Shown: piece by piece, positions 16,753-60,388 of the stretch | Layout: each line of letters begins with the position of its first letter | Position numbering within the stretch: the first letter of the stretch is position 1 | Program-made: the position numbers and the translations under genes | Notes under the pieces: model-generated | Told to the model about the DNA's origin: nothing | Databases searched by the model: none | Seen by the model: only the letters and a program-made list of their open reading frames with translations | NCBI GenBank assembly: GCA_030549335.1 | Contig: CM060195.1 | Coordinates: 30,260,874-30,324,873 of the forward strand | Direction of reading: 5' to 3' | Length of the DNA stretch: 64,000 bases | Source of the DNA: Pontederia crassipes | Lineage: Eukaryota; Streptophyta; Magnoliopsida; Commelinales; Pontederiaceae

Positions 16753-19700
16753 TTAGGACTTACCAAATAATGTCAAAAATTCTCTTTGCATCTCAGACTC
16801 GAGTTCCCAGGTTGCTTCGTCACCTCGGTGATGGCTCCAAGTCACCTTGACTAGTGGTAGCTTCTTGTTGTTGTGACGTTGGACCTTGATCTCTAGAATC
16901 TGAAAGAGTTGCTCCTCATAGGTAAGGTCATCTTTGAAATTGGGTTCTTCATACCTTACCACATTTGCATCATTATGTTTATACTTTCGGAACGACGTGG
17001 AACACATTATGAACTCGCCCATAGAATGAAGGTAAGGCTAGTCTGCAAGCACCCTCTCCAACTAGCTCAAATACCTCAAAAGGACCAACATATTTTGGAC
17101 TGAGTTTTCCTCTTTTACTGAACCTCATCACTCCTTTAGTTGGGGAAACCTTCAAAAGTACTTGGTCACCTGTCTGAAAATTTTGTTCACGTCGTCCTAT
17201 GTCAGCATAAAACTTTTGTCATGCTTGAGCTGCCTTCATCTTTTTTTGTATTAACTCAACTCTTGTTGAATATTTCTCTGTCTGTTTCAACTTCTTAGCA
17301 TCCAAAATCTTTCTTTCACTTATCTCATTCCAGCATGCAGTTGAACGACACGGTCTCCCATACAAGGTTGCAAAGGGAGCCATAAGAATGCTGAAATGAT
17401 AACTATTATTATAAGCAAACTCAATCAGCGGTAGGTGATCATCCCAGTTGCCCTTCCAGTCAAGGGCACATGCTCTTAACATATTTTCAATTGTTTGGAT
17501 CGTCCTTTCAGTCTGACCGTCCGTTTATGGATGGAATGTCGTACTGTAATTCAGCCTCGTTCCAAAAGAGTCTTGTAGGCCTCTTAAGAATCTGACTGTA
17601 AACCTTGGATCCCTATCTGATACAATGGAGGTGGGGACCCCATGAAGTATGATGATCTCATGAACATATAAATCCATGAGACTCTACACTAATTGTTTGG
17701 ACTTTATGAGTAGAAAGTGTGCAGACTTCATTAACCGATTTACAATCACCCATATGGCATCATGTCCCTTCTGGGTACGGGATAAGCATGTTATGAAATT
17801 CATGGTAATATCTTTCCACTTCCACTGTGGAATGACGAGAGATGTGATCTTTCCGTAAGGCATTCATCCATCACTTCCCTTTTGAGAGCTTCATCACTTG
17901 GGACCATAGACGATTTCTGTATCGGATCCCACCATCTGTTGAGAGCTTAAAATCTTCTTCTTCTTTCTTGCATCTTCCCAACATCTTGGCATACTCAGGA
18001 TCTTGGGTCTGAGCCATAATGATCCTATCCACCAGATTCAGCTGTATCTGATGCATAATTAGTACTGCTCCATTCCTTCTAGGCCTTGACTTTCATAAGG
18101 TTAGTTCCTACATTATCTTATACATCCCATCATCGTTGCAGAGTTCGCCTTACTAGAGTGGTAATTAATGGCGAACTCATAGTCTTTGAAATATTTCTTC
18201 CATCTTCGTTGTCACATATTGAGGTCTCGTTGAGAGAAGACATATTTGAGACTCTTATGGTCGGTGAACACCTCAAATTGTACTCCATAAAGGTAGTGTT
18301 GCCAAATATTTAATGCGAAGACTATTGCTGTAAATTCAAGGTCATGAGTTGGGTAGTTCACTTCATGCTTCTTCAGCTGTCTAGATGCATATGCGATCAC
18401 TTTTTCATGTTGTATGAGTACACATCCCAGTCCTGTGCCACAAGCATCACTGTACACCACATACCCGTCAGTACCTTTCGGAATGGGGAGTATGGGTACA
18501 GTGTTCAACCTGGCCTTCAATTCTTGGAAACTATCCTCGCATTTCTGTGTCCATATGTACTTCACACATTTCTTTGTTAGGTTCGTCAAGGGAGATGCAA
18601 TTTTTGAAAAATTCTTGATGAACCTGCGGTAGTAATCTGCCAATCCGAGGAAGCTACGGATTCCAGCGGCATGTTTGGTCTTGACTAGTGGGATACCGCT
18701 TCTACTTTGGAAGGATCCACAGAATGTCCTTCTTCGAGATTACGTGTCCAAGGAACATAATCCAATCGAGCTAGAACTCACACTTCGATAGTTTGCCATA
18801 TAACTTGTGTTGCCTTAGCTTTTCCAAAACTATCTTCAAGTGTTCTTTGTGTTCTTTATTTTTCGAATAAATCAAGATGTCATCCACAAAGACAATGACA
18901 AACTGATCCAGATACGGTCTGAACACCTGGTTCATGAGATCCATGAAGACTGTAGGGACGTTCGTCAGTCCAAAAGGCATCACTAGATATTCATAGTGAC
19001 CATACCTTGATCGGAAAGCTGTCTTCTGTACATCTTCATCGGCCACTCTAAGTTGGTGGTACCCACTTATTAAGTCAATCTTAGAGAATACCGTGACATT
19101 TGACAGTTGATCGAAGAGGTCGTCGATCCACGGTAGAGGGTACTTGTTCTTGACTGTGACTTTATTCAACATCCGGTAATCAATGCACAATCTTAGAGAG
19201 CCATCATTCTTTTTAACAAATAGCACTGGAGCATCCTAAGGAAATACACTCGGCTTGATAAGCCCCTTGTCTAAAAGTTCTTAAATTTGCTTTTTCAATT
19301 CATGCATCTCAGCCGGTGCCATCTTGTAGGAGGCCTTCGAGATCGGGGCAGTGTCTGGGAGGAGGTCGATTCGAAAATTGCTCTCTCGTTGAAGTGATAA
19401 TCTGGAGATGTCGTCCGAAAAAACATCCTGAAAATCCTGAACTACATCCAGTTGTTGTAGTTGGATCCCTGGGTTGTCCATCTTCATTACATTCACAAGG
19501 AAACCTCTGCATCCCTTCTGTATCATTCTTTGTGCCTAATGACTTCGGTGTCTACCGGTACTGCATCTTCTTATAGGTGGAAGACTCTTCCACGCACCAT
19601 GTTGTTCCCGCCTCTTGTATCACGTGGAGCTGGTGCGGGATCATCCTTCTTAGTAGGACAGTCATGAATGAAATGTCCTTGTTGACCACAGTGCAAGCAT

Positions 19701-36549: not shown

Positions 36550-39500
36550 TTATGCATCTTCATTAATGTCTGTGAAAATCTTCTTGCAGGCCTCATAACA
36601 CATGAAGGAGATCCCTGCTGCCGGCATCAATTTCATGTAGCTGGGACCCAAACCCTTATAAAGTCCCCCAACACCTTCCTTCTCCAATATGCTCAAGAGA
36701 GCATGGAGCATGTTCTTGTAGACGTGCCTACCACCAACAGCTCCAAGTTGCATACGCTTGCGGGCGATCTCAAGAGGGAAGGTAGCGGTGCTTGATATTA
36801 CACCGGCCGCCGATCCGATGAGAAGTATTGCAATGTTCCCTATCTCCTCCTTTTGGAAGACCTTCCTATGGAGCTTCTTGAGGGATTCATAGGCAAAATA
36901 ATTAGTAGCAGCATAAGGAACGACTCCAATGAGGCTAGGGACAAGACCTCTGTATAGCTCCGAAGGGCCTCCTTCCCTCAATATTTTGACAAAAGCATGT
37001 TGAAAGTCATCATAGACACCTCTCTGAAAAATAAATTAAGAGGTGTGACGTGAAAATACAAAGTCATATGCCATTTTCTCGATATTACAGACCTGTACTG
37101 TTATCCGGGTCTTCAATAGCTCTAGAGGATATGTGAAAAGGGTAGAACTGAATCCCGCGAAAGCTCCAGCGACCAATGACGAGGGAATGGGAAGCATGGG
37201 CAGATTACCATCTTTGGGATTCAAAATATTTTGAGCTGTATCATAAGCGAATAACTGCATGGTACATAAGAAACCCTTAGGCATGCCGAAATACTGACTG
37301 TCGTAAAAATGAGAAATTCAGATAGCAATTGCCGGCAAAAGAAGATTTCCAGATACAAATGCACAGCAAAGTATCGAAGTACTGTAATATGGTTAAAACC
37401 AATTTCTACTGTCCAGTAAGAAATGAAGTGATAAAATTAGCTGAGGGGGCACATATATGATTGTAGTTTACAAACTTGCAAGAGAAAATTGAAAAGGATA
37501 AAGAATTTCCCTCAGATGCTTGATTCACTAATATTTATTTTGACATCAAATGCAAAATAAATCACGTGATTCATGATATGGAAGCAATTCTTCTGCAAAT
37601 TAAGTTATCAAACAAGAAAGATAGGTAAACCTCAGCATGTGATGAATTAATGCATCATAATAAGGACCAGTAGGGATATCTTAAAATTGGAATTGAAATT
37701 TAAATCAATAAGTAACAGTCATCAACAAATTGCTAAACATCTAGGGGTGAATCCGATGACCCAACCCTATAACACAACTGGTGGTCAGGATGGGTACGCA
37801 TTGGGAACAGAGACAATTGGAAGACCCAATATTTTATTACTTTTTTTTTACTTTTTATTTAACTTTAAGCTTATGTTTCATTTAAAATTTTAAAAATTAT
37901 GAAAAATAAAATGTGGAAGACTTATTTTATGCTTTAAAATTAATATTAAGCAATAGTTTTTATATTAAATAATGCAAAAAGAAAAGAAAAAAAGGAAAAT
38001 GGTGTTCAGGTAACCAAATCACCCGCCAAGTCAACCCAACCAGGGCCTCGTTGCATTGGATTCAAGCATAAATTTGGATACAACCCGACTCACGAACATC
38101 CTTAAAAATATTAGTCTGAATGAACAATAACTATGACAACTCCGCCTATGTTTTATAGCCGGTCCCAAGCCCGGATAAAGGAGGAGGGTTGTGTTAGGTC
38201 CCGACAGCCAGCGTAAAACCCTATCAAATCTCATGAACATGGATCAATGAATATGTAAGATCTATTGGTGAATAATATACCGAAAGGTTTGGTTACTAAT
38301 AGAGCGGAATGACGTCGTATGATCCATGTAGCCGGCCCCACCTAGTGGGATAAGACTTTGTTGTTGTTGTTGTTGAACAATAACTATGACAAAATTTTGA
38401 TCTCAACGAGTAATAATTTTGAGAAACTTTCAGTACCTTAACGAGTAATAATTGCGAGAAAAGATAAAACGGCCAATGTGAGGTACAACTGACACGAAAT
38501 ACTAACTTTATGTGGATGCTAAGGCTCTATCCTTTTAAGATAGTGGAAAATTCTGTGCCATATTAGTTAGTTGGAGATTCCTGTCTGACAAAACCTAAGA
38601 CTTAGATGGGTAATAAGTTATTCCAAATCAGATAATTAAGGAGATGCTTGAGATTTATGATCATATAGGTTGTAATATTACCAATAGCACTAAAATAAAC
38701 TGCATCAGATGCAATGAATAAGACAGCATGAAGTCGTAGTGATATAAAAATGACCAACTTATGAACTTATCACTAAAGGGAGACGGACATGCCAAAGGCA
38801 TGAAGGAAACTTTGTACTCCACAAGGTTAATGTAGGAACTTGTTTTTGAAGAAATGAATCAAGAATTTAGTACTTTCAAAGAATTAAAGATGAAACATCA
38901 GATAAATAGACTCAAAGCTATTTCAGTGGCATGTTTGTGTTCTTGAACAGACAACCCATGCGTACTGCTAGCAAACTTGGAAGTTAACTGTAGTTACCTC
39001 AATTGCTTTGCTCGGTGCAACTCGGATGACATTAACAAAATTACCACGAAATAGTCCCTTCCATCCCTCTGTCTTGGTAATAGATTCGAAAACCTCTGCA
39101 ACCGAATTCCCATTGCTCCCGACCATAAGATGCGTCTTGATTGTCTCCAGGGGAGCAACACAAGTGCGCGAAACAGCACCAGCAATTGCTCCACTAACCA
39201 ACCTCCTTAAATGGGGGTTTCCAATCCGAATCCTTATCCTCAATCCAGCTTTCTTCCCTTTCTTATTAACCAAAGCAATTGTCTCCTCCTCCTCCTCCTC
39301 CTCCTCCTTGATGTCACTTGCTTCCAGCATTAATTGAGGTGCAACTATTCCTCTTGAGCCGCTTATGCAGTATCCTCCCAACTCGGTCGGGGCATACTTC
39401 AGACAGAGATCAGTTCCGGGAACCTTCACGTTGTTGCCTCTACTACCTCTGAGCGAGTTCGGTGGCACACCGAAGCCAACTCCTGCCTGCCCGACACTGG

Positions 39501-44920: not shown

Positions 44921-47643
44921 CACTACAAGAAAATTGTCAATTTGCGACGGACAAACATCCTTGTCATTTACGGATGGCATTTGCGACGGACAAAAAAAGC
45001 TTCCAAAATATCGAGGGCCAAAATATCCTTCGCTACTATAGATGAAAAATACTCATCGGTAAGTTATCGACGGATATATCCTTTGGAATTACCGAGAGAT
45101 TTAGATGCCATTATGAAGGCCGGACCCGTCGGTAATTATATTTATAATAATGTATATGATATAATATAAGTATATATTTGATATTTTATTATTTAAATTA
45201 CTGACGGGCATAACCTTCGAGATTACCAAGGGATATTTATCCGTCGGTAATTCCGAAGGCTAGGACCGTCGATAATTAATTTTTATAATATATATATGTA
45301 ATGTAGTATTAATATATGCTTAACATTTTATTACTTTAATTACCGACGGTCCTAGTCTTCGAAATTACAGACGGATAAATATTTCTCGATAATTTCGAAG
45401 GCTAAGCCCGTCGGTTACTAAAATAATAATTTATTAGTAATGCTTATAATATAATAAAATGCATATTTCTTACATTTACTTTTGTTCTTTTCTTGATGCA
45501 TTAATATAATATAATATATTAACTAAAATATCATTATTTTCATAATTGTCTTTAATATTTTATTTTTTTACTCATTTACTTTAATATATTTACAGGTATA
45601 GAATGTAGATTATAAATAAATTTAGAATATAAAATAGAAGAGTTTTAATAAAATTAAAATATGTTAACTTCCTATACAAGATATAACTAATTTTAATCAC
45701 AATATAACAAATATGTTAATATATGATTAATATGTTAATATATGATTAATATGTTATATCTAATGATAATATTAAGATATATAAGTTACTCTGGATAGTA
45801 TGTATACATATTAAGATATATAATATGGATAGTATGTACACATATTGATTAACATTACTACTATATACACATTAACATTATGAAATTAAGACATATAATA
45901 TTAAGATATATGTGTCTTTTATAATATGTCATCTTGTATACTTTTAAAGGGTCATTTTTTATTTATATAAAGGTTCATCATAACTTATAAAATTAGATAC
46001 AAATTTAATCTATTAAGTTACTTTTTATTAATTGTGAAATGTCAATTTAATCTTTATTATCTTATTACAAGAAATATTTATTAAAAATAAAAAATATATG
46101 GATAAAATTATTTATAAAAAAACATATTATGTCTTTTATAATATGTACTTTTAGAGTCATATTATATTATAACATAATACATACATATCTTTCATTTATT
46201 TATAATACTTATATTATATTATTAATGTTTTTAGTCATATATATAAATATAGATAATAATTTATTATTAATGTTTATAATATAATAATATCGCTCTTCCA
46301 TTTACTTAAAATATTTATAATATAATATGATATTATTAGTGTTTATAATCATATATATTAATACATATAATATTAATATTGTTTAATAATAATATTATAT
46401 GTATAAATATTGATCTTAAATGATATTACTTTAATTACCAAAGGGCAATTCCTTCAAAAATATCGACGGGTATCAAATGTTTCGGTAATTTTGAAGGAAG
46501 TATCATTCGATAATTAATATTTAAAAATTATATATAATATAAGATAAAATATATTATTAATATGTTAATATTATATTTATCGATAGATAAACTTTCGTCG
46601 ATATTACCGAATGTTTCATCCGTCACTAACTCTAATTTTTTTCCGCCCAATCTTCCCTCCCTCTCCCTATTTGTTCCCCCGCCCAACTTCTCTCCCTATA
46701 TCACTCTCACTAGTCCCCCCTCTCTCTCCCTCTATACGTCTCTCTCCCACGACAGCGGCAACGACTCCCATAGCTCCGGCGACCTTCCACGACTCTGCCG
46801 ATCTTGACTCTGGCCGCCCTCCCCCTCTCTCTTGACTATGGCTGCCAGTGGTTGGATCCGGCGCCTGCGGCGGCCGCACATGCCACCGGATCCATCGCAC
46901 AGGATGCCAGATCTTGTGCCTGCAGTCGGATCATGCGTTGGCATCCGAATCCGACCACAGGCATCGGATCCATCGCTGCACGCTGGAACCGCTTCTCGCG
47001 CGCCGGAACCGCCACCCGTGTGCTGGATTCGGTCTCCATCCCCCTCTCCCTCTCCCTCCCTCTCTATCTCGATTTCGGCCGCCTGTTTCGGATCGGTTGC
47101 CAGCATCGATTCGATAGTAGGCGGCCTATTTTTTTTAATATTTTTTAAAACTTTTCAATGGATGTATTTTCCGCACTCCATCAATGCATGCAATCGGTGT
47201 CGCCCGTCGAAGGCTTCGGCGGGTGTGACCCACCAAAGCCTTTGACGGGTCACACCCTTCGAAGGTTTTGATGGGAGTTCTCCCGTCAGAACTAAAGATA
47301 GCTTCTCCCATCGAAACCTGCGAAGACTTTCTCATCGGATTTCGACAGCACGATTGATAGCTTCTGACGGCAAAATTCGTTGGATGTTTGGAAGGATGAC
47401 CTTCCCTTTGGACATTTCGATGGATTCTACTCGTTGAAAATTTTGAAGGCAATTTATCCGTCACAGACATTCGCCAAAACTTCCGAAGGAACGTTTGGGG
47501 ACCGTTGATAATTCTTTCCGATGAAAAAATTTCCAACAAACTACTATCCGTCGAAAAATCTGTCGCAAAGTCATATTTTACGATGGATTTCGAAGGTTTT
47601 GCAATGGATATATCCATCGCAAAATCTCAATATTCTTGTAGTG
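44921..47643. mobile_element. non-autonomous CACTA (En/Spm) transposon
   Basis: 2723 bases with ends CACTACAAGAAAA.../...TATTCTTGTAGTG and a 3-bp duplication ACC at 44918-44920 and 47644-47646. Subterminal regions hold many short GACGG/CCGTC-type motifs (for example ACCGTCGGTAATT and CTTCGAAGG units), as in other CACTA elements. The middle is AT-rich to 46600, then a CT-rich and GC-rich block to 47130. No transposase domain was recognised, so it depends on a helper. It split the RT region of the outer chromovirus. Confidence 0.93.
46630..47130. other. GC-rich cargo block inside the CACTA element
   Basis: A CT-rich run followed by GC-rich sequence with repeated GGATCC and CATCGGATCC pieces. 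A block of similar style starts the CACTA remnant at 59690. It has several overlapping open frames without known domains. It may be captured host promoter/leader DNA. Confidence 0.4.
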
Positions 47644-49352
47644 ACCAATGCACCTGCAGCATTCATGGACTTCATGAACAAAGTTTTTAGTCCACACCTA
47701 GATCAATTTATCATAATGATTTTAGATAACGAAGAACAACACAAGGAGAACTTAAGAGTGGCTTTAGAAACTTTGAGACAACACAAGCTTTATGCAAAGT
47801 TCTCAAAGCGTGAGTTCTTACTGGAGGAGATGAATGTTCTTGAGCCACATCATATCTAAGAATGTAATCACGATAGATCCAACAAAAGTAGAAGTAGTTG
47901 AGAATTGGAAGCAACCAAAGAACACTTCAAGATCTAGAGGTTTCTCGACCTCGTAGAATACTATATGAGATTTATCAAAGATTCTCCAACATAGCCGCCC
48001 CATTGACTAAGCTGACAAGGAAGGAGGAGAAATTTGTATGATTTCAGAGATGTGAGAACATCTTCCAAGAAATAAAGGGGAAGGTGACAACTGCCCCAAT
48101 ACTCACCCTACCCTTAGGAAGTGGTGAGTACAGGATTTATAGCAACACATTCAGGACAGGTCTAGGATGCATGTTGATGCATCATGGGAAGGCCATAGTT
48201 TACGCGTCCAGACAGTTGAAGAAGCATAAACTATTCCACCCATGACTTGAAATTGGTAGAAGATGCGAAGATATTATCTAATACGGAGAGGCATTCAAAG
48301 TATTCATAGATCACAGAAGCAGAAAGTATGTCTTCACATAGAGAGACCTCAACATGAGGCAAAGACAATGGGTGGAGCTACTAAAGGACTATGATACCAC
48401 CCAAGCAAATCTAACTCAATAGTAGAGGCACGAGGCAAGAAATAGGAAGGGACTCTTGCCTTCCTCAGGCTGAGATAGTGTTAGATGATAGAAGAATTGA
48501 GCAAGTGGAATCCAATGCCTGGGAAGAATAGAGTATTCGTGATGATGTAGAGGATCGAATTGGACTTGGTGAACTGGATCATCAAGATCCAACCCAATGA
48601 TATAGAGCACTAGGCGATGATGAAAAGGTGCAATTCGAATGAGAAAGATATTCAACAACCAGGATGGGGGAATCAAGATACAAAGGTCGCCTATAGGTCC
48701 CCAATGACCCAACTCTAAAGAGAGAAATCCTGAATGAGAGGGACAAACTGGAGTTTACAATCTATCCAAGATGTACTCAATGTACAAAGATATGCAAAGG
48801 AGTTTCTGGTGACTAGATATGAAAAGGGAGATTGTCGAGTAAGTGTCAAAGTGTTTAGTATGCCAACAAGTGACGATATAACACCAAAGACCCTATGAAA
48901 AAATGAAATGCTTGGGCATCCCACAATGGAAGTGGGGCGAGATTATATGGACTTTGTCACTAGTCTACCGCACACTCAAAAGGGTTTATGGCGCCATATG
49001 GGTGGTCAGATCGATTGACAAAGGTTGTGCATTTCCTACCAAGAGAGTATGATGAATCTATATGTCCAAGAGATCATCAAGCTAGATGAGATCCCCATAG
49101 TGATAGTATCAGCTCGAGTCCTAGGTTCACCTCCAAGTTTTGAAAGAGTCTGGAAGAAGCTTTTGGGACCAAGCTGAATTATAGCACAACCTTTCATCCG
49201 TGACAGAGCGGACCATCCAAACTTTGGAGGACATGCTAAGGGGATGTGTTATTGATTAGCATGGGACTTGGGATGATCACCTACCGTTGATAGGATTCGC
49301 CTACAATAGTAGTTTCTATTCCAATTTTGGCATGACCTCATTTGCAGTTCTC

Positions 49353-51106
49353 TGATGCGTTGTATTTGTAACAATAAAAATTGCTAGCAAGTACACTAGT
49401 CGCTCAAGTAATATAGTAAAAAGGAGTAAGAGTGTCGAACCCACGAGGAATATTATTAATTCAATATCTGGATTTATAAATTAATAAGAGAGGAAAAACA
49501 TGAATTTTTGGAAAGAAGTTTTATGAAATAAAATAAAGAAAATAAGATAAAGATAAGATAATGGTGTTGAAGTTAGGCCTTAGGATGAAAATAGATCAGG
49601 ATAAATATTTGAACCATAAAAGATAAATTTAATCTTTAAAGATGGATTAGGAATTTTCTCAAGTTATTAATTTACAAGATTAACATCACAGAGTCCACAA
49701 ACTGGTAATTCTGCTATTTAATCCGGTAAATCAAACTATCTTAAATTTAATCAAACCTAAAGTCCCACAAACTAGTATTCGTCAGATAAGATTAGAATTA
49801 AGATGCATTAATATGAAAATCCTAGACTATTAATCACTCCACAAACTGGTTAGATTAACAGACCACATAAACCTGATTCTCCACACACTAGTTATCAAAT
49901 TTATGTCAATTATTAATTTCACATAAAATCAATTAATTTAATTAATGAATTCTGAAATTAAATAATCCACAAACTGGTAAGTACTCAACTCAGAAATCCA
50001 AATAATTAAATCAAAAGCATTAAGCACAATTAACTAATTGATCAGAAAAGATTAAAACAAATAATATAGGGTCCAAATAGTTTCCCTTCAATAATAATCT
50101 CCTAAAATGAAATAAATAAAAATATGGAGTTCATCCTAGAAATTCTTGAGAGATAATAACAAAATAATAATAATTGGAAGAATTACACCCAAATAAACAA
50201 AAGTCGAAGCTTCGGATCACGGGCAGATAGTCGGGCAGCCTCTCGGACTTGATCAGGGTCGCGATCAACTTCCAGCCGTCGCACCTCTCTCCTTTTGGTC
50301 GTAGCCTGCAGAGCTCACGACTCGCCGTGGAAGAAACCTGAACTTCAGAGCACGAATTGAAACGATGGATTCTTCACGTATTTATAGGGTGCGGACGGCC
50401 TTCAATTTGATCTCGACCGTAACATCGTACGGTTGACTTTAAAATTATAAGATAAACTCGGCCAAAGATAAATCATTTTATCATTACGCCCAAAGATAAA
50501 TCTTTCTTATCTTTTTACGCCCAAAGATAAACTCGGCCGTAAGGAAATTATTTTATCTTTACACCTTCATATATCGGCCAAACGATGATTTCATTGCCAT
50601 TACCCCCTCCAAATCTCGGCCGTAAGGAATTATTTTATCTTTACTCCCAAAGAGATAAAATTTCTTTTATTCCCTCAAAATTTCGGCCGTAAGGAATGAA
50701 CTTATCTTGTTACGCCCAAAAGATAAAATCAATTGATTGTTACACCCTTCATATTCATGCCATTACGCCCTCCAAATTTTGGCCATAAGGAAAGACTTCT
50801 TATCATTACCCCCTCCATATCTCGGCCAAAATGATATCTTTTATCCTAATCTCGGCCATAATGATAAATTCTTCGGAATTTCGGCCGATACAGTACAATC
50901 CATTTAAATCTCGATTTTTCCTGCAAAATATTTATCAAAATTTAGTTAATCCATCCACAATTAAAATATTCAGAGATTTTAATAATTAAAATTGATAAAT
51001 CCGGAATTATGATTAAAAGTGACTAAAAATGATGCATGCCATGATCAAATTATAGAAAATTTAATTAAAATAATTAACTAAAATATGTTGTATTTTGTAT
51101 GCATCA
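49353..51106 (-). repeat. 3' LTR of the Athila-lineage element
   Basis: 1754 bases, nearly identical to 57697-59450. It contains about a dozen TCGGCCGTAAGGAA-related motifs between 50400 and 50900. Confidence 0.95.
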
Positions 51107-51122
51107 AACTCCCCCAAGCTTA
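51107..51122 (-). other. polypurine tract of the Athila-lineage element
   Basis: On the minus strand AAGCTTGGGGGAGTT abuts the 3' LTR, the place and composition expected for priming of plus-strand DNA synthesis. The same string recurs near 52231-52246 upstream, a second tract just after ORF1. Confidence 0.8.
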
Positions 51123-52362: not shown

Positions 52363-53895
52363 TTACTGTCTGCGGGGTGGCGATGGTGGATGGTAGCCGA
52401 GATTTCCTTGGCGCATATGATACTCATGGATGCGTCTCGTCATGCGCGCATATTGATTCTGAAGGGATTCGAAACAACCCTGACGATCATCCATATTTCT
52501 AAAATCAGCTCGAATGTTGGTCAACTCTTGTGCTTGTCGAAGTTGCTCTTCCTGAATAGCGTGCAACTGCCCTGACTGACGAAGTTGCTCTTCTTGAAAA
52601 GTGTGAAACTCCCCTACTTGACGAAGTTGTTCATCATACATTGATTCGCATAAGTTTTGCATGGAAGCATAGTCAGGCTGAGGTGGCGGAGGTGGATAGT
52701 AAGTCTGCTCTGGGGCTGAAGTAAAAGTGGGCTCCGGTGCTATATAGCGATTCTGCACAGGTTCTTGTAAAGGGGCAGATACTTCCATCGAATCGCGTTC
52801 CTCATAAGGAGTAGAATGTATGAACGAGGAATCAGAAGAGCTCTCTTGTGCTGGAGATGGAATCGGAGAAGGCACCGGCATATAAGGTGAATGGACGGAT
52901 GTGGCATATTGGGAAGCTGCCGGTGATGCAGCCTGGAATCCTTGTTGCTGTTGAAGGTAGGGTTGGGCTGCCGCATAATCAGTAGAATCAAACCAGGAGA
53001 AAGGTTCATCCTGATGTAGCTGTCCGACAGAGGTAGATGATCCTGTAGGTGGGATTACTGGAGCTATGACCTGCCTAAAAAGGAGCCAATTATTTGGATT
53101 AATCGGCGTAAAAGCATCTCGATCTGAGCAGGGCACCTCCTGATGGTGGCCTTTAAAAATAAAAACTTTGATCCCTGAGTTGTTGGTCTTCACGAGACCC
53201 ATAGCCTGAATGGTCCTACGAGTGAGGTGAGTGTTTCCTGGCACAGCTTCGAGATCATTCAAGTCAAGTTGTAGGTGCTGAGCGATAGGTGTGAGAAGAG
53301 CACCCATATTAATGCTACCGCCACGATGAGTAGTGCGGCGCTGGAATCGACGAATGAGGAAGGCACCCACATTAACGGGAGTTCTGTGAAGCATGCTGTG
53401 GATGAGATATAACTCTCCTTCTGAGACGGCACCATCATTATCATTGCGTCCACTTATGGTGTTGCTTAGCATGCGATGGACGTAGCGCAAAACAGGATTC
53501 TGAATTGAGCTATCTTTAGCGGTGTTCCAAACCAATCGGTCTTCTTCTGTTATATGTTTCCAAAAAGTTTCAGCATCAAAGTCAGCAGGTACAGAAAGAG
53601 ATCCATGGTTGGGAAATCCATAGATATTATTAATCTCTCCTAGAGTGAGAGTAAATGGTCGTCCATAAAGTTGGAATGAAATGCGGGGCTGATCATAGTT
53701 CCTGCCATCTAAATTAAAGATTTCCAGAGATGAGAGGAATTCCATAATTAGTACTTCATAAGTTGGCCACCAAGAATGCACAAAGTCAGATAGTCCAATT
53801 TGAGAAAATAATAGATGAGTATCTACAAGTAAATTATACTCCCTCAGCAATTCAGTATCTGAAAATCTGGTGGCATGAATTCGAATATCACACAT
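52363..53895 (-). CDS. Athila ORF1-like protein of the retrotransposon
   Basis: An open frame of 510 residues lies between gag and the 3' LTR. Its first half (WWPTYEVLIMEFLSSLEIFN..., LYGRPFTLTLGEINNIYGFP, and HSMLHRTPVNVGAFLIRRFQ) has the features of the 'Arabidopsis retrotransposon ORF-1 / ATHILA' family. That family is known from the Athila lineage and has no proven function. The second half is proline/glutamine-rich, followed by repeated EEQLRQ units, likely coiled-coil, at about 420-470. The frame is long and open, in keeping with the element's youth. It belongs to a mobile element, not the host. Confidence 0.75.
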   Translation of the reverse strand: MCDIRIHATRFSDTELLREYNLLVDTHLLFSQIGLSDFVHSWWPTYEVLIMEFLSSLEIFNLDGRNYDQPRISFQLYGRPFTLTLGEINNIYGFPNHGSLSVPADFDAETFWKHITEEDRLVWNTAKDSSIQNPVLRYVHRMLSNTISGRNDNDGAVSEGELYLIHSMLHRTPVNVGAFLIRRFQRRTTHRGGSINMGALLTPIAQHLQLDLNDLEAVPGNTHLTRRTIQAMGLVKTNNSGIKVFIFKGHHQEVPCSDRDAFTPINPNNWLLFRQVIAPVIPPTGSSTSVGQLHQDEPFSWFDSTDYAAAQPYLQQQQGFQAASPAASQYATSVHSPYMPVPSPIPSPAQESSSDSSFIHSTPYEERDSMEVSAPLQEPVQNRYIAPEPTFTSAPEQTYYPPPPPQPDYASMQNLCESMYDEQLRQVGEFHTFQEEQLRQSGQLHAIQEEQLRQAQELTNIRADFRNMDDRQGCFESLQNQYARMTRRIHEYHMRQGNLGYHPPSPPRRQ

Positions 53896-54069
53896 CCGTT
53901 CATATCGAGCTTGATACTCCGGCTTAGTCCAATAATAATCTCCGGGGTAGGAGATTAATTGTGAGGGCTGTGGGGCCGGCTGAGCATTCGGATGTCGTCG
54001 TTCATGACGTCCCCTCCATATATTAGCAAATCATCTCATCTTGATCTGGACAAAAATAAATAAAGAAAA

Positions 54070-54650
54070 GGTACCAGCTCGGTGGAAGCGGCTGAGGTTT
54101 CGACCGTAGTATTCGATGAAGAACCGGCTGAAGGTCGGAGGTGACTCGGCCGTAAGGGACCGGTTGACGAAGAACTTTGGCCGTAAGGAATTGTTTGATG
54201 AAGAACTTCGGCCGTAATTATTGAAGCTTGGCCGTAGATTGGAGTTTGGCCGTAAGAAATTGGAGGCGTGACTCTGAACTTCGGCCGTAAGAGTAGATGA
54301 ACCTGTAGATTTCGGCCGTAACGAATGGCGGTGAGATTTCGGCCGTAAGAAGTCTTGATGCGCGGTGTTGAGGCAGATGGTAGGAGCGCGGTGAAAACTC
54401 GGCCGTAATAAGTGTCGGTGTGCGGTGGAAGACCGGCCGTAACGAACAGGGAAGCGCTGGAACTTCGGCCGTAAACTCGGCGCGCGGTGGCTCGGCCGTA
54501 ACGCACCCGGGGCGTAATGGGTCGTCTCCGGCCGTAAGAAATGGCGGTGAGAGCACTGGAACTTCGGCCGTAAGGAACAGGCGCGGCGCTTTTGGGCGTA
54601 AGGATCGGCGTAATGGTGTTGAGACTTCGGAACTTCGGCCGTAGAGAGAA
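54070..54650. repeat. array of TTCGGCCGTAA motifs between gag and ORF1
   Basis: About 16 copies of GGCCGTA, most as TTCGGCCGTAAG or CTCGGCCGTAA, at spacing of about 20-45 bases, with shortened forms (GGGCGTAA). Spacer sequences differ, so it is not a plain tandem satellite. On the minus strand the array stays open in more than one frame and yields LRPK / YGRS / TAEV repeats, probably a by-product of the motif. Confidence 0.85.
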
Positions 54651-55034
54651 TCAATTCTTGAAATTTATGCCCCTGAGTTTATCTCTCCTTACAAAACATT
54701 AAATATTAATTAAATTAAATGACTCCATAATAAAATAAATGTCTAATTAAAAATAAAACTATCACCGAAACTAAGATATTAACAACTAATTAGACTAATC
54801 TAAAAAAAATAAAAATAAAAAGGATAAAAATAGTTCTGATTTATAGTCGTTAGCTTGACTTAGTTCTGATGAAAATCAAGGCCTATTTTGCTCTTCCCCT
54901 CTTGGATTTTTCTCTGTGTTACTTGGGAGAGAGCCCGGTGTACGTCCAGTTAGTTGTGCCGCCATCTGGCCCAGTTGTCTTTCCAGATTTCGAATTGATG
55001 CATCCTGACTCGTGGCTCTAGATTCCATATTCTT

Positions 55035-56264
55035 TTACAACGCTTGCATTGTGTCTATGATCTGTGCCATCATCTCCTGCATATGATTTGATGATTGATA
55101 TTGGGGAGTATCAGGTTGCCTTTTCAGTATATAATCTTTTGATGGACCAGAAGATTGGCCTTGATTCTGATTATAGGCAAACTTCGGATTATGTCTCCAA
55201 CCATAATCGTTGTTCCTGTAAAATGGATTGGAAATAAAGTTAGCATTTTCAATTTGATTTGAATCTGAAGTGTTACCTGTAGGGCTATAATTGCTAGAAT
55301 TTCCCATTAGTGACATCATCTGCTCGAATTTTTGATTAAGTGACTCCAGCTGAGCCACTATTTCTGAAGACTGTATTCCTTGTGTAGCATGTACATCATG
55401 AGTTCGGCGAGATGGTCTCCTTTCTTGGCTTGACTTGAGTGCTGCAACTTCAATAATATCTTGTATCTCACTAGGACATTTAGATCCAAGTACTGTCCCT
55501 CCTGCTGATTGATCGAGTTTGTCTTGATCTGCAGGTCGTAATCCATGGTAGAAATCTTCCATCACTTGCCACTTTGGAATTCTATTATCAGGAACTCTGG
55601 CCAGCAGTTCCTTATATCGTTCACAGGTTTCATATAACGTCTCGTTATCGTCTTGAACAAATGCCCTCAGCTCTCTTCGATATTTGCCTGCCTTTTGTGG
55701 TGGACAATATTTTCCAACAAACTTTTTTACTAGCTCCAACCAAGAATGAATCGATCCTGAAGGCAAAGTTTTAAACCAGGTGGAAGCTTTGTCACGTAAA
55801 GATTGAGGAAATAATAATAAACGAATAACTTCAGAAGAAACATTATTATTTCTAAAGGTGCTCAGAGTGGCAAGAAATTTATCAAGGTGATCGTGAGGGT
55901 CTTCATGAAATCCTCCTCCAAATTGGGATGCTTGTATCATCCTCACGATTGCGGGATTTATCTCAAAATTATTTGCGTTAATATCAGGCAGCACGATGCA
56001 TGATTCTCGGTCACTGTATCTGGCCGAGACATATTCTCTCATAGAAAGTTCTGCTTCATCTTCTCACCGATTATTATGTGGTGGAACCAGTTCATTCTGT
56101 TGCTCCAGTCTCTGATTGTCGCGTGCTTGTTCCGCCATTTTTCTTATATTTCTTCGTAATCGACGATAGGTTCTTTCAATTTCAGGATCAAATTCCAACA
56201 GTGGATTTGAACTTCTAGTGCGCTTATCAGAAGATTCCAGGATTGGTTGTGATTTAATCTTCAA
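55035..56264 (-). CDS. gag region of the Athila-lineage element
   Basis: Contains a retrotransposon gag (capsid) domain: DPHDHLDKFLATLSTF, then IRLLLFPQSLRDKASTWFKT, LPSGSIHSWLELVKKFVGKY, and RRELRAFVQDDNETLYETCE with RYKELLARVPD. This pattern is shared by Athila and Tat capsids. An N-terminal portion (LEFDPEIERTYRRLRRNI) precedes it. No CCHC knuckle was seen downstream. The region looks nearly whole, with perhaps a single break. Confidence 0.8.
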
Positions 56265-56520
56265 TTAGTACCTGCAACAACCAATTTTCAGTAAGATAAA
56301 AGAATAAAATAAAATATATATACAAGAAGGAAGAAATATAGATAATAGGTCACGAAAAATGAGTTTTTAACAAATAAAGTCTTTCGGCATGATAGAATTT
56401 GAAAATTCGTCATTAAAATTAATTTTCGAGAGGAAATTTTCAGAAATTCTTCAAACCAATACGAATACCAAATATTAATGTCGACCAAAAGAATTTATGA
56501 TGATGTAACAAACGGCACAA

Positions 56521-57480
56521 AATAAGTCTGAACTAATTTGCGACCGTAAAGTTAATAATCAGACATAATCAAAAATTATTTTCAGAGAGGAAATAAGATT
56601 GATCGGCCGTAATACGAAATAGATTTACGGCCGAAATTAGATTAGTAATTCGAAGCTCGTTCGACCATAAAAATATTGAAATAGTGTCGAAGGCGTAAAC
56701 CAATTAAATTACGGCCGTAACAAACTAGTTATCATGGAATTTCGGCCGTAAGACAGAAAACTAAACAGGGTGTTCGACCGAAATAAATAAAAAAAAATCG
56801 TCGACGATTTTTTTACGGCCGAAGACGAGTAAGATTCATATCGGTCGTAAATCGATTAAGTCGAACGTGAGGTAAAACATCAACACATATAAATCGGCCG
56901 AAATGAGATTAAATCAAACTTATTCGTTCAGAAATATATTACGGCCGAGACAGACTAAATCGCTTTGGCCAAAACAAAGTTAAATCAAAAGTTCAAACTA
57001 TTATAATGTTACGGCCGAGAATGAAAAAATCACAAATAAATTGGTCTAAAAGGTCGTAAGATGGCGTAAAAACAAATGTTCAGAAATTTTACGGCCGTAA
57101 ACCAGCCATAGAAGCCTTTACTCGAGGAGGTGCAACCATGAGATCAATTCTCGGCCGTAAAAAGATTAAATCGTCAATTAAGACGAGTCACATCGGCCGA
57201 GATGATGTTAACACGAGGCCGTAAAGAAAAATAGGGTTTCGGCCGAAATAAAAATTGAATCATTACGGCCGAAAGTGAATTAAGAAGATTCTCTACGGCC
57301 GTAAAAAAATGAAATCAATTCCATGACGTAAAACAATGTTCGGATAAAAATATTACGGCCGTAAAAATTGAAAGTATAGAACTCAGAAATCATTCATTGC
57401 GAGGCCGTAAAATTAATAAAGCCGACACATTAAATCTCGGTCGTAAAATCATAAATCGACAATGTAATTCGGAAAATTCA
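56521..57480. repeat. array of ACGGCCGTAA motifs in the 5' leader
   Basis: About 20-25 copies of CGGCCG-centred motif in both half-forms (ACGGCCGAAA and TCGGCCGTAA), with full palindromes ATTACGGCCGTAAC (about 56709) and TTTACGGCCGTAAA (about 57088). The array lies between the primer-binding site and gag. Confidence 0.85.
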
Positions 57481-57672
57481 ATCGGCGTCGGATTTTAAAC
57501 CGAAAGTAGATAAATAAAAAAATTATCGTAACCTTTATCTGCAAAAGAAAAAAAATGTTAGTTTATTCACAAAAATAATTAAAACAATTAATACATATTT
57601 ATAAAGAATTATTTACAATTTATTTACATCTCCTAATAATTCATAAAAATTAGAAATTAATTAATAAAATAT

Positions 57673-57690
57673 TCCCCGGTAACGGCGCCA
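57673..57690 (-). other. primer-binding site, tRNA-Asp type
   Basis: On the minus strand TGGCGCCGTTACCGGGGA lies 6 bases inside the 5' LTR. It is complementary to the 3' end of plant tRNA-Asp at 17 of 18 positions, the usual primer of Athila-type elements. Confidence 0.85.
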
Positions 57691-57696
57691 AAAACT

Positions 57697-59450
57697 TGAT
57701 GCGTTGTATTTGTAACAATAAAATTTGCTAGCAAGTGCACTAGTCACTCAAGTAATATAGTAAAAAGGAGTAAGAGTGTCGAACCCACAAGGAATATTAT
57801 TAATTCAATATCTGGATTTATAAATTAATAAGAGAGGAAAAACATGAATTTTTGGAAAGAAGTTTTATGAAATAAAATAAAGAAAATAAGATAAAGATAA
57901 GATAATGGTGTTGAAGTTAGGCCTTAGGATGAAAATAGATCAGGATAAATATTTGAACCATAAAAGATAAATTTAATCTTTAAAGATGGATTAGGAATTT
58001 TCTCAAGTTATTAATTTATAAGATTAACATCACAGAGTCCACAAACTGGTAATTCTGCTATTTAATCCGGTAAATCAAACTATCTTAAATTTAATCAAAC
58101 CTAAAGTCCCACAAACTGGTATTCGTCAGATAAGATTAGAATTAAGATGCATTAATATGAAAATCCTAGACTATTAATCACTCCACAAACTGGTTAGATT
58201 AACAGACCACATAAACCTGATTCTCCACACACTAGTTATCAAATTTATGTCAATTATTAATTTCACATAAAATCAATTAATTTAATTAATGAATTCTGAA
58301 ATTAAATAATCCACAAACTGGTAAGTACTCAACTCAGAAATCCAAATAATTAAATCAAAAGCATTAAGCACAATTAACTAATTGATCAGAAAAGATTAAA
58401 ACAAATAATATAGGGTCCAAATAGTTTCCCTTCAATAATAATCTCCTAAAATGAAATAAATAAAAATATGGAGTTCATCCTAGAAATTCTGGAGAGATAA
58501 TAACAAAATAATAATAATTGGAAGAATTACACCCAAATAGACAAAAGTCGAAGCTTCGGATCACGGGCAGACAGTCGGGCAGCCTCTCGGACTTGATCAG
58601 GGTCGCGATCAACTTCCAGCCGTCGCACCTCTCTCCTTTTGGTCGTAGCCTGCAGAGCTCACGACTCGCCGTGGAAGAAACCTGAACTTCAGAGCACGAA
58701 TTGAAACGATGGATTCTTCACGTATTTATAGGGTGCGGACGGCCTTCAATTTGATCTCGACCGTAACATCGTACGGTTGACTTTAAAATTATAAGATAAA
58801 CTCGGCCAAAGATAAATCATTTTATCATTACGCCCAAAGATAAATCTTTCTTATCTTTTTACGCCCAAAGATAAACTCGGCCGTAAGGAAATTATTTTAT
58901 CTTTACACCTTCATATATCGGCCAAACGATGATTTCATTGCCATTACCCCCTCCAAATCTCGGCCGTAAGGAATTATTTTATCTTTACTCCCAAAGAGAT
59001 AAAATTTCTTTTATTCCCTCAAAATTTCGGCCGTAAGGAATGAACTTATCTTGTTACGCCCAAAAGATAAAATCAATTGATTGTTACACCCTTCATATTC
59101 ATGCCATTACGCCCTCCAAATTTTGGCCATAAGGAAAGACTTCTTATCATTACCCCCTCCATATCTCGGCCAAAATGATATCTTTTATCCTAATCTCGGC
59201 CATAATGATAAATTCTTCGGAATTTCGGCCGATACAGTACAATCCATTTAAATCTCGATTTTTCCTGCAAAATATTTATCAAAATTTAGTTAATCCATCC
59301 ACAATTAAAATATTCAGAGATTTTAATAATTAAAATTGATAAATCCGGAATTATGATTAAAAGTGACTAAAAATGATGCATGCCATGATCAAATTATAGA
59401 AAATTTAATTAAAATAATTAACTAAAATATGTTGTATTTTGTATGCATCA
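57697..59450 (-). repeat. 5' LTR of the Athila-lineage element
   Basis: 1754 bases, same length as its partner at 49353-51106, with about nine mismatches. Includes the same CGGCCGTAAGGAA motif series between 58740 and 59240. Confidence 0.95.
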
Positions 59451-59685: not shown

Positions 59686-60388
59686 TAACTCTCCCGCTGG
59701 TTTTTTCTTTTCCAACTTTTCCCTCTCTCTACCCCTATATATCACTTCTCCCTCTCTCCTCTCTCCTCTCTCTCCCTAATTGGCCGCGACTGGCGTGACG
59801 ACCGCCGTCCTGGAACCTCTCCCTCTCTGGCTCCCTCTCCTACCAGATCTCCATCTCTCTCGATCTCCCACTCCGAACGGGCGCCAGGTGGCCTGATCTT
59901 GCCGCGGGTGGCCTAATTGGCCGGATCTTATCGTGGGCGGTCGGATCGGCCGCCTGACGGCCAGATCATGCTATGGGCGGTCGGATTGACCGCCTGGCAG
60001 CCGAATTTTACCATGGGTGGCCTGATCAACGGCCTAGCGGCGGACAATTTTTTTTTATATTTTATAAATTATTTGCGATGGTTGCGGCTGTCAGAACCTT
60101 TTGACGATTGCGATCGTCAGAACTTTTCGACGATTGTGACCGCCAAAATGTTTCGACGATTGCGACCGTCGGAATGTTTCGACGGTTGCAGCTGTCGGAG
60201 TTTTGCGACAGTTCCAACCATCAGAACTTCCAACGAATTTTTTGGAACCGTCAGAAATCATTTTGCGTCTCCCTCTTTTTTGACGTATCATTTCCGTGGG
60301 TAAACCCGTCACAAACTTTCATTTCCGACGGTTTCTTTTGATTTTCTGACGGACGAAAATATCTGAAAACACCATTTTTCTTGTAATG
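59686..60388. mobile_element. CACTA remnant lacking one end
   Basis: Ends in ATTTTTCTTGTAATG, close to a CACTA right terminus, and interrupts the integrase end of the outer chromovirus. It starts directly with CT-rich and GC-rich sequence similar in style to 46630-47130 and shows no CACTA left end. A tandem of about five ~34-base units with CGACGATTGCGACCGTCAGAA lies at about 60100-60230, and GACGG motifs follow. Confidence 0.65.

What the first reader, a model, noticed from the sequence alone, without database searches (positions are those of the whole stretch)
54070..57480. Dispersed palindromic motif TTACGGCCGTAA in the non-coding parts of one retrotransposon
Seen: roughly 40 or more CGGCCG-centred sites in two blocks (54070-54650 and 56521-57480) plus further copies in both LTRs (about 50400-50900 and 58740-59240), some as full 12-14 base palindromes and many as half-palindromes. 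They are almost absent from the gag and ORF1 blocks. Spacers between sites are unrelated, so this is not ordinary tandem repetition. Inference: possible binding sites for a dimeric protein, host or element-encoded, used for transcription, packaging or silencing; each site also brings two CpGs.
Basis: partly seen in the sequence, partly recalled or inferred. Interest (0 to 1): 0.8.

Follow-up and report, generated by a model that had tools for sequence, protein, structure and literature searches.

The report
Repeated CGGCCG motif in plant retrotransposon
A recently inserted plant retrotransposon carries dozens of copies of one short DNA motif in its promoter and in other stretches outside its recognised genes, probably docking sites for a regulatory protein, in a layout already described for an unrelated retrotransposon group.

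Summary
In a 10,098-bp Athila-type (Ty3/gypsy) retrotransposon on the minus strand (LTRs 49353-51106 and 57697-59450, TSD TTCTC), CGGCCG occurs 35 times against 0.62 expected in dinucleotide shuffles, with none in gag, ORF1 or the region after ORF1. The shared form is directional, about YTTCGGCCGTAA around a palindromic core. Sites fill three places: U3 just upstream of the TATA box, the 5' leader, and the 600 bp before the env-like ORF1 (PF03078). Flank identity is near random (0.29-0.37) against 0.73-0.79 for cores, though U3 and block B keep traces of tandem duplication. Predicted RNA structure is explained by the motif letters alone. The closest known thing is the CGG-CCG 'repeated motif' of Ty1/copia Sireviruses, in the same two main places (PMC2829016). 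I read this as a cis-regulatory array for a sequence-specific DNA-binding factor, in another superfamily: a new variant of a known kind. Whether ORF1 encodes the binder, as VANC does in VANDAL transposons, is open and testable. No other family copy could be examined.

The parts
49353..51106 (-). 3' LTR (in element sense), 1754 bp, TG...CA ends
   Evidence: aligned to the other LTR with 9 substitutions; I cut the alignment at TGATGC...GCATCA, its last two mismatches lie outside the LTR
57697..59450 (-). 5' LTR (in element sense), 1754 bp; element flanked by the 5-bp duplication TTCTC
58723..58731 (-). TATA box CTATAAATA of the 5' LTR (sense offset 720)
58737..59234 (.). U3 motif cluster in the 5' LTR (18 sites within 2 mismatches, 11 within 1: 6 plus, 5 minus), sense offset 217-714, ending just before the TATA box
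   Evidence: coordinates are those of the 3' LTR copy plus 8344; no U3 difference between the LTRs
50393..50890 (.). same cluster in the 3' LTR
57674..57690 (-). primer binding site TGGCGCCGTTACCGGGG, 6 bp from the LTR end
   Evidence: seen; tRNA-Asp assignment recalled, not tested
56521..57490 (.). block A: 5' leader motif block between PBS and gag; 20 sites within 1 mismatch (11 plus, 5 minus, 4 tied), with the only 3 full 12-base palindromes (56709, 57089, 57353)
54876..56264 (-). gag, broken by two in-frame stops (56064-56066 and 55035-55037)
   Evidence: PF03732 E 5.3e-18 in the middle piece (55035-56063)
54060..54660 (.). block B: motif block between gag and ORF1; 17 sites within 1 mismatch, all in the same orientation
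54046..54069 (-). candidate splice acceptor TTTTCTTTATTTATTTTTGTCCAG| between block B and ORF1
   Evidence: a simple pyrimidine-tract scan that gave one other candidate (ending at 54800)
52363..54030 (-). ORF1, 555-codon open frame, env-like/ATHILA ORF-1 family; the in-frame ATG at 54037-54039 is followed at the third codon by TGA (54031-54033)
   Evidence: PF03078 E 7.8e-21, PF20167 E 4.4e-07 (below its curated cut-off); sequence
51107..51119 (-). polypurine tract region (GCTTGGGGGAGTT) next to the 3' LTR
   Evidence: seen

Best explanation
The motif blocks are cis-regulatory arrays: many copies of one roughly 12-bp site (YTTCGGCCGTAA, palindromic core CGGCCG) that a sequence-specific DNA-binding factor occupies in clusters at the LTR promoter (U3, directly upstream of the TATA box), in the 5' leader, and in front of the env-like ORF1. 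Shown: the arrays, their positions, their excess over chance, their directionality and the core-versus-flank contrast within this copy. Inferred: that a protein binds them, that clustering gives cooperative occupancy which activates or keeps open the element's promoter(s), and that arrays grew by local duplication while selection kept the cores. It works like the Sirevirus CGG-CCG repeated motif, here in a Ty3/gypsy Athila-type element with an added leader array. The binder's identity (host factor or element-encoded) is not settled.
For: 35 CGGCCG against 0.62 expected, 0 of them in gag, ORF1 or the post-ORF1 region. Separate word counts put TTACGGCC/GGCCGTAA first in block A and in block B; in U3 the leading words are TTTATCTT and overlapping words, then TTACGCCC/GGGCGTAA, a variant of the half-site. 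Core pairwise identity 0.73-0.79 against flanks 0.29-0.37. The U3 cluster runs from sense offset 217 to 714, TATA at 720; Sirevirus clusters start 200-400 bp into the LTR, extend 300-500 bp and precede the TATA box (PMC2829016, section 9 and passages). Block B precedes the env-like ORF, as 77 of 79 linker copies precede ENV in Sireviruses. CpG observed/expected 1.46, 1.51 and 2.25 in the three blocks against 0.64 gag, 0.73 ORF1, 0.49 post-ORF1.
Against: No binding, expression, methylation or small-RNA data. One copy only; conservation across the family untested. Sites were picked by their match to GGCCGTAA, so core identity is inflated by selection (the counts are not). U3 and block B keep tandem-repeat traces: 7 of 28 and 4 of 66 spacer pairs exceed the shuffled 99th percentile (0.1 and 0.6 expected); block A 7 of 171 (1.6 expected); spacers under 8 bp were dropped. 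In U3 the CpG excess is the motif itself: 0.81 after the wide mask, 1.26 after a narrower one. U3 has a different mix, with many GGGCGTAA variants. Bare CGGCCG is also above expectation outside the element (12 against 2.05). Block B's stop and ATG depletion is not predicted by this reading.
Confidence: 0.6

Rival explanations
1. VANC-like system: the element's own ORF1 protein (ATHILA ORF-1 family) binds the motif arrays and removes silencing marks, as VANC proteins do on motif arrays in non-coding parts of VANDAL transposons.
For: VANC21 binds a 9-base motif arrayed at high density in one orientation in introns, intergenic and terminal non-coding regions, grown by tandem repeats (PMC5735166); block B is 17 of 17 same-orientation. 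ORF1 keeps a 555-codon open frame although no pol domain was found and gag has two stops. A sunflower Athila aORF with partial similarity to PF20167, a relative of this family, was predicted nuclear (PMC11728184 passages). CpG-poor coding parts next to CpG-rich motif blocks in one element.
Against: No DUF1985 or DUF287 hit for ORF1 in Pfam at E up to 10 (filters drop most weak hits). The structure model is useless (pLDDT 35). The in-frame ATG of ORF1 is followed by a stop at its third codon. Sireviruses without ENV also carry the LTR motif (4 of 13), so an env-like protein is not needed there. U3 and block A sites lie in both orientations. No methylation data.
Confidence: 0.17
2. Neutral, decaying tandem repeats: hypervariable stretches expanded by slippage or reverse-transcriptase template switching, with the motif as the surviving homology at switch points and no binding function.
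For: TRF finds 31-bp and 41-bp units in U3, 31-bp and 18-bp in block B, 24-bp in block A; residual flank and spacer similarity in U3 and B. Tandem repeats in plant LTR elements are the subject of PMC7004042 and of PMC11963269 (search listing and abstract starts only).
Against: Cores are kept while flanks are near random, in three places of different composition, and in both orientations in U3 and block A. Neutral decay of methylated DNA should erode a core with two CpGs early (plant methylation biology, recalled).
Confidence: 0.15
3. RNA-level role: self-complementary sites pair within or between transcripts (dimerisation, packaging, or hairpins that feed small RNAs).
For: Block A folds better than dinucleotide shuffles (z -7.6, 0 of 20 as good), block B z -2.2 (0 of 20). 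Clustered Sirevirus palindromes are small-RNA hotspots in maize (citing passages in PMC10760457 and PMC5311732).
Against: With motif letters fixed and spacers shuffled the excess disappears: z -0.03 (B, 17 of 40 as good), -0.72 (A, 12 of 40), -0.38 (U3, 14 of 40). U3 sites lie upstream of the TATA box. Such stability follows from any repeated palindromic core.
Confidence: 0.06
4. Block B is partly coding: a translated N-terminal extension of ORF1 whose repeats happen to carry the motif, so the motif there is a by-product.
For: The 215-codon frame 54031-54678 is contiguous and in frame with ORF1, split by one TGA; the sense strand has 2 stop trinucleotides in 601 nt against 9.9 with motifs fixed (1 of 1000 shuffles as low).
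Against: Two frames are open for about 200 codons and the third for 146, not one; the motif falls in all three frames (10, 3, 2 of 15); no ATG in the block; no Pfam match for the frames of the block. Says nothing about U3 or block A.
Confidence: 0.02

Closest known systems
Sirevirus repeated motif (RM) with CGG-CCG signature (Ty1/copia; PMC2829016)
   Same: Many copies of a CGG-CCG-cored motif in the first half of the LTR upstream of the TATA box, and again upstream of the env-like gene; flanks diverged; CpG-rich.
   Different: The element is Ty3/gypsy Athila-type; the motif is mostly directional (YTTCGGCCGTAA) rather than a clean dyad; there is an extra array in the 5' leader; only block B passes a CpG-island threshold; no pol in this copy. 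The paper calls the motif Sirevirus-specific on a Ty1/copia comparison set.
VANDAL21/VANDAL6 target arrays of VANC anti-silencing proteins (DNA transposons; PMC5735166, PMC10398659)
   Same: Short motif at high density, same orientation in block B, outside the recognised genes, tandem-repeat growth; the element also encodes a protein of unknown activity.
   Different: Retrotransposon; different motif (YAGTATTAY or AGTTGTMC there); ORF1 shows no detected DUF1985/DUF287; mixed orientation in U3 and block A; no binding or methylation evidence.
Athila lineage of Ty3/gypsy (PMC6317226)
   Same: PF03078 extra ORF on the sense strand before the 3' LTR, Retrotrans_gag domain, long regions without recognised genes.
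   Different: No RT/INT to place it by phylogeny; non-autonomous copy; motif arrays are not mentioned in the passages I read.
MAIN/MAIL1 'DOWN' promoter motif (PMC7156037)
   Same: Transposon-derived plant mobile domain proteins linked genetically to a short DNA motif.
   Different: Host genes, different domain family; direct binding only proposed in the passages read.

Membership tests
Sirevirus-type CGG-CCG repeated motif | CGG-CCG core | tested here: met
   35 exact CGGCCG in the element; 31 with U3 counted once
Sirevirus-type CGG-CCG repeated motif | At least 8 copies in an element | tested here: met
   11 + 17 + 20 sites (U3 counted once) within one mismatch
Sirevirus-type CGG-CCG repeated motif | Whole motif palindromic (dyad symmetry) | tested here: not met
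   core only; full 12-mer in 3 of 31 exact cores; TTA on the left in 0 of 12 (block B), 0 of 4 (U3), 8 of 15 (block A)
Sirevirus-type CGG-CCG repeated motif | Cluster in the upper LTR half, starting 200-400 bp in, before the TATA box | tested here: met
   sense offset 217-714, TATA at 720 of 1754
Sirevirus-type CGG-CCG repeated motif | Extra copies upstream of the env-like gene | tested here: met
   17 sites in block B, directly before ORF1
Sirevirus-type CGG-CCG repeated motif | Clusters form CpG islands | tested here: inconclusive
   GC>=0.5, o/e>=0.6, 200 bp: island 54258-54667 (block B); U3 cluster and block A give none (G+C 0.37 and 0.36); islands 50174-50381 and 58514-58725 lie just after the TATA box
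Sirevirus-type CGG-CCG repeated motif | Host element is a Sirevirus (Ty1/copia) | tested here: not met
   ORF1 is PF03078, and the PBS is not the Sirevirus TATCAGAGC quoted in PMC2829016. It works like the Sirevirus motif but the element is not a Sirevirus
VANC anti-silencing system | Dense motif arrays in non-coding regions of the element | tested here: met
   block B's non-coding status is not certain
VANC anti-silencing system | Element encodes a VANC (DUF1985/DUF287) protein | tested here: not met
   no such hit for ORF1 at E up to 10; a distant relation is not excluded, since weak hits are filtered
VANC anti-silencing system | Protein binds motif and lowers DNA methylation | not testable with these tools
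   no laboratory data
Athila clade (Ty3/gypsy) | ATHILA ORF-1 domain in an extra ORF (found in 16% of Athila elements per PMC6317226) | tested here: met
   PF03078 E 7.8e-21, score 74.9, cut-off 20.2
Athila clade (Ty3/gypsy) | 5-bp target duplication (recalled as typical) | tested here: met
   TTCTC on both sides
Athila clade (Ty3/gypsy) | RT/INT phylogeny within Athila | not testable with these tools
   no pol domain in the 15 sense frames of 50 aa or more in the internal region
Athila clade (Ty3/gypsy) | tRNA-Asp primer binding site (recalled) | tested here: inconclusive
   TGGCGCCGTTACCGGGG present; match to the tRNA recalled, not computed

The most novel reading that the evidence does not exclude
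Probability: 0.13. Interest if true: 0.85.

Novelty: new variant of a known kind. Interest (0 to 1): 0.55.

Why it matters
Repeated CGG-CCG motifs at the promoter and before the env-like gene were described as Sirevirus-specific (PMC2829016, on a Ty1/copia comparison set). The same layout in a Ty3/gypsy Athila-type element points to convergence or shared use of one class of host factor, and ties the motif to env-like genes in both superfamilies. What those genes do was still called unclear in a 2020 review (PMC7264820 passages); the arrays give a concrete DNA target against which the ORF1 protein can be tested.

Tried and rejected
Other family copies: no whole genome is held for this window. 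ORF1 in viral contigs: no match. Gag in genome contigs: 31 pattern matches, none confirmed as a relative. ORF1 against solved structures: 2 weak hits (E 0.022 and 1.2), taken as chance. AlphaFold2 of the ORF1 domain (277 aa, no alignment): pLDDT 35, so no fold search was made. Motif letters in print: 170 papers, 20 listed, no listed title on retrotransposons. LBD (LOB-domain) factors as a host binder: 42 papers, 10 listed, no direct support in the listing; the idea rests on recall. Regular spacing: adjacent spacings in block B show no 10-11 bp phasing; the best periods are 13.75 bp in U3 (21 of 400 random sets as strong), 32 bp in B (64 of 400), 12.5 bp in A (155 of 400), so weak at most. RNA structure as the selected feature: rejected after the motif-fixed shuffle. 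Seeded motif learning in U3 drifted to an over-broad model and was not used. The first flank test stopped on a script error (which had printed the site tables) and was redone.

Prior reports of such arrays in Athila or other Ty3/gypsy elements: searched (609 papers, 25 listed; 2 papers, both listed; 19 papers, 15 listed); among the listed titles and abstract starts only PMC2829016, on Sireviruses, describes such arrays. The library holds open-licence PMC papers only. Bousios et al. 2016 (palindromes in Sirevirus LTRs) and Sasaki et al. 2022 were not held and are known to me only through citing passages and reference lists.
Full report
What the element is. The finding lies in one LTR retrotransposon on the minus strand. 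Two LTRs of 1754 bp (49353-51106, 57697-59450) differ by 9 substitutions and the element is bounded by the 5-bp duplication TTCTC. In sense order it holds: 5' LTR; primer binding site (57690-57674); block A (57490-56521); gag (56264-54876), interrupted by two in-frame stops, with PF03732 at E 5.3e-18; block B (54660-54060); ORF1 (54030-52363), 555 open codons matching PF03078 'ATHILA ORF-1' at E 7.8e-21; a region of 1256 bp without the motif; polypurine region; 3' LTR. No pol domain was found in any of the 15 sense-strand frames of 50 aa or more in the internal region (listed; scanned). So it is a non-autonomous Athila-type copy; the lineage label rests mainly on ORF1, not on an RT tree. That the host is a plant is inferred from these families.

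The motif. Against dinucleotide shuffles (300 per region, 40 for the outside), CGGCCG occurs 35 times in the element (mean 0.62, maximum 4). By region: 4 in each LTR (means 0.08 and 0.04), 12 in block B (0.42), 15 in block A (0.12), 0 in gag, ORF1, the post-ORF1 region and three short spacers. Exact GGCCGTAA occurs 28 times on the plus strand and 8 on the minus strand (means 0.09 and 0.05). Outside the element the 8-mer is below expectation (4 and 5 within one mismatch against 10.2 and 9.5), although bare CGGCCG is above it (12 against 2.05).

Its true form. Oriented by the better half, 48 sites within one mismatch of GGCCGTAA (U3 counted once) give YTTCGGCCGTAA; position 3 is T in 36 and A in 5. 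Of 31 exact CGGCCG cores, 21 are followed by TAA, 8 preceded by TTA, 3 both. The three full palindromes are all in block A. Orientation: U3 6 plus and 5 minus, block B 17 and 0, block A 11 and 5 with 4 tied. So the palindrome is the core; the site as a whole is directional in most places. U3 uses many GGGCGTAA variants on the other strand.

Cores against spacers. With cores masked, 14-base flanks have pairwise identities (left/right) of 0.29/0.37 (U3), 0.35/0.32 (B) and 0.30/0.33 (A) against shuffled means of 0.28-0.32, while 12-base cores reach 0.73-0.79. Core identity is raised by the way sites were picked. Residual similarity is clear in block B (both flanks, 0 of 500 shuffles as high) and in the right flank of U3 (1 of 500; left 320), and weak in block A (75 and 29 of 500). 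Spacer pairs above the shuffled 99th percentile: 7 of 28 in U3, 4 of 66 in B, 7 of 171 in A, where 0.1, 0.6 and 1.6 were expected; spacers under 8 bp were left out (2 of 10 in U3, 4 of 16 in B, 0 of 19 in A). TRF sees diverged 18-41 bp units. I conclude that arrays grew at least partly by local duplication and that the cores outlasted their surroundings.

Position. The U3 cluster spans sense offsets 217-714 of the LTR, and a CTATAAATA box starts at 720. Block B ends just before ORF1, with a candidate splice acceptor at 54046. Block A fills most of the leader between PBS and gag.

Base composition. CpG observed/expected is 1.46, 1.51 and 2.25 in U3 cluster, block B and block A, against 0.64 (gag), 0.73 (ORF1), 0.49 (post-ORF1) and 0.78-0.87 (R-U5). 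After masking motif-like letters it is 0.81 in U3, 1.30 in B (80 of 1000 shuffles as high) and 1.83 in A (0 of 1000). Other mask widths give 1.26, 1.47 and 2.03 (narrower) or 0.89, 1.16 and 1.80 (wider). So the excess beyond the motif is firm only in block A. That this reflects low methylation in the past is inference.

RNA. Blocks A and B fold better than dinucleotide shuffles (z -7.6 and -2.2, 0 of 20 each), but not better than sequences with motif letters fixed and spacers shuffled (z -0.72 and -0.03; U3 -0.38; 40 shuffles each). The structure is a by-product of the motif.

Comparison. The best match is the Sirevirus repeated motif (PMC2829016; I read section 9 and passages): a palindrome in 8-32 copies per element, 117 of 127 LTR copies in the upper LTR half starting 200-400 bp from its start, upstream of the TATA box, and 77 of 79 linker copies upstream of the env-like gene; 12 of the 13 motifs share CGG-CCG with family-specific letters around it. 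This element meets copy number, core, LTR position and pre-env position; it does not meet full dyad symmetry, and it belongs to the other superfamily. The authors found the motif absent from their other Ty1/copia elements; a database comparison gave mainly stress-related sites but no single common binding factor. The second match is VANDAL/VANC (PMC5735166, text parts 1-3 of 6 read; PMC10398659 passages): short motifs in dense same-orientation arrays in non-coding regions, bound by an element-encoded anti-silencing protein. A 2026 sunflower study cites VANC as an example in discussing lineage-specific methylation of Tork and Athila elements and leaves open whether their own ORFs act so (PMC12844716 passages).

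Mechanism. I commit to a DNA-level cis-regulatory array bound by a sequence-specific factor (0.6). Shown: arrays, positions, contrast of cores and flanks in one copy. Inferred: binding, cooperative occupancy, effect on transcription or chromatin.

Loose end. The sense strand of block B has no ATG and only 2 stop trinucleotides in 601 nt, TpG observed/expected 0.25; ATG absence is expected from the dinucleotide content (151 of 500 dinucleotide shuffles also have none), stop depletion is not (0 of 500). The frame contiguous with ORF1 is open for 215 codons up to one TGA. A founder effect in a duplicated array could produce this, which makes the shuffle figures too optimistic; a start-codon-free leader for an ORF1 message is another reading. 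I leave it open.

Noticed in passing
54060-54660, minus strand: No ATG and only 2 stop trinucleotides in 601 nt of sense strand, TpG o/e 0.25; two of the three sense frames open for about 200 codons and the third for 146; one frame contiguous with ORF1 apart from a single TGA.
   Followed up: partly
49353-51106 vs 57697-59450: All 9 LTR-LTR substitutions fall in the R-U5 part (1027 bp), none in U3 (727 bp); chance about 0.008 if uniform; four of them within 66 bp.
   Followed up: partly
50174-50381 and 58514-58725: A CpG island by the usual thresholds lies just downstream of the TATA box in each LTR, outside the motif cluster.
   Followed up: no
50380-50900: A second word, TTTATCTT/AAGATAAA, is counted 7 times (both strands) in U3 next to the motif; a binder is unknown.
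   Followed up: no
59920-60226: Tandem repeats of 40 and 26 bp with GGTCGGATC- and GACCGTC-like parts just outside the element; near 60380 a sequence resembling a CACTA-type transposon end (recalled, untested).
   Followed up: no
18215-19235 and 47512-47856: Other retroelement fragments: RVT_1 (E 1.3e-31) and RNase H (E 2.5e-28) at 18-19 kb; a weak RVT_1 match (E 0.006, below cut-off) at 47.5 kb.
   Followed up: no
36553-37035: Mitochondrial carrier protein exon (PF00153, E 1.3e-38), minus strand.
   Followed up: no
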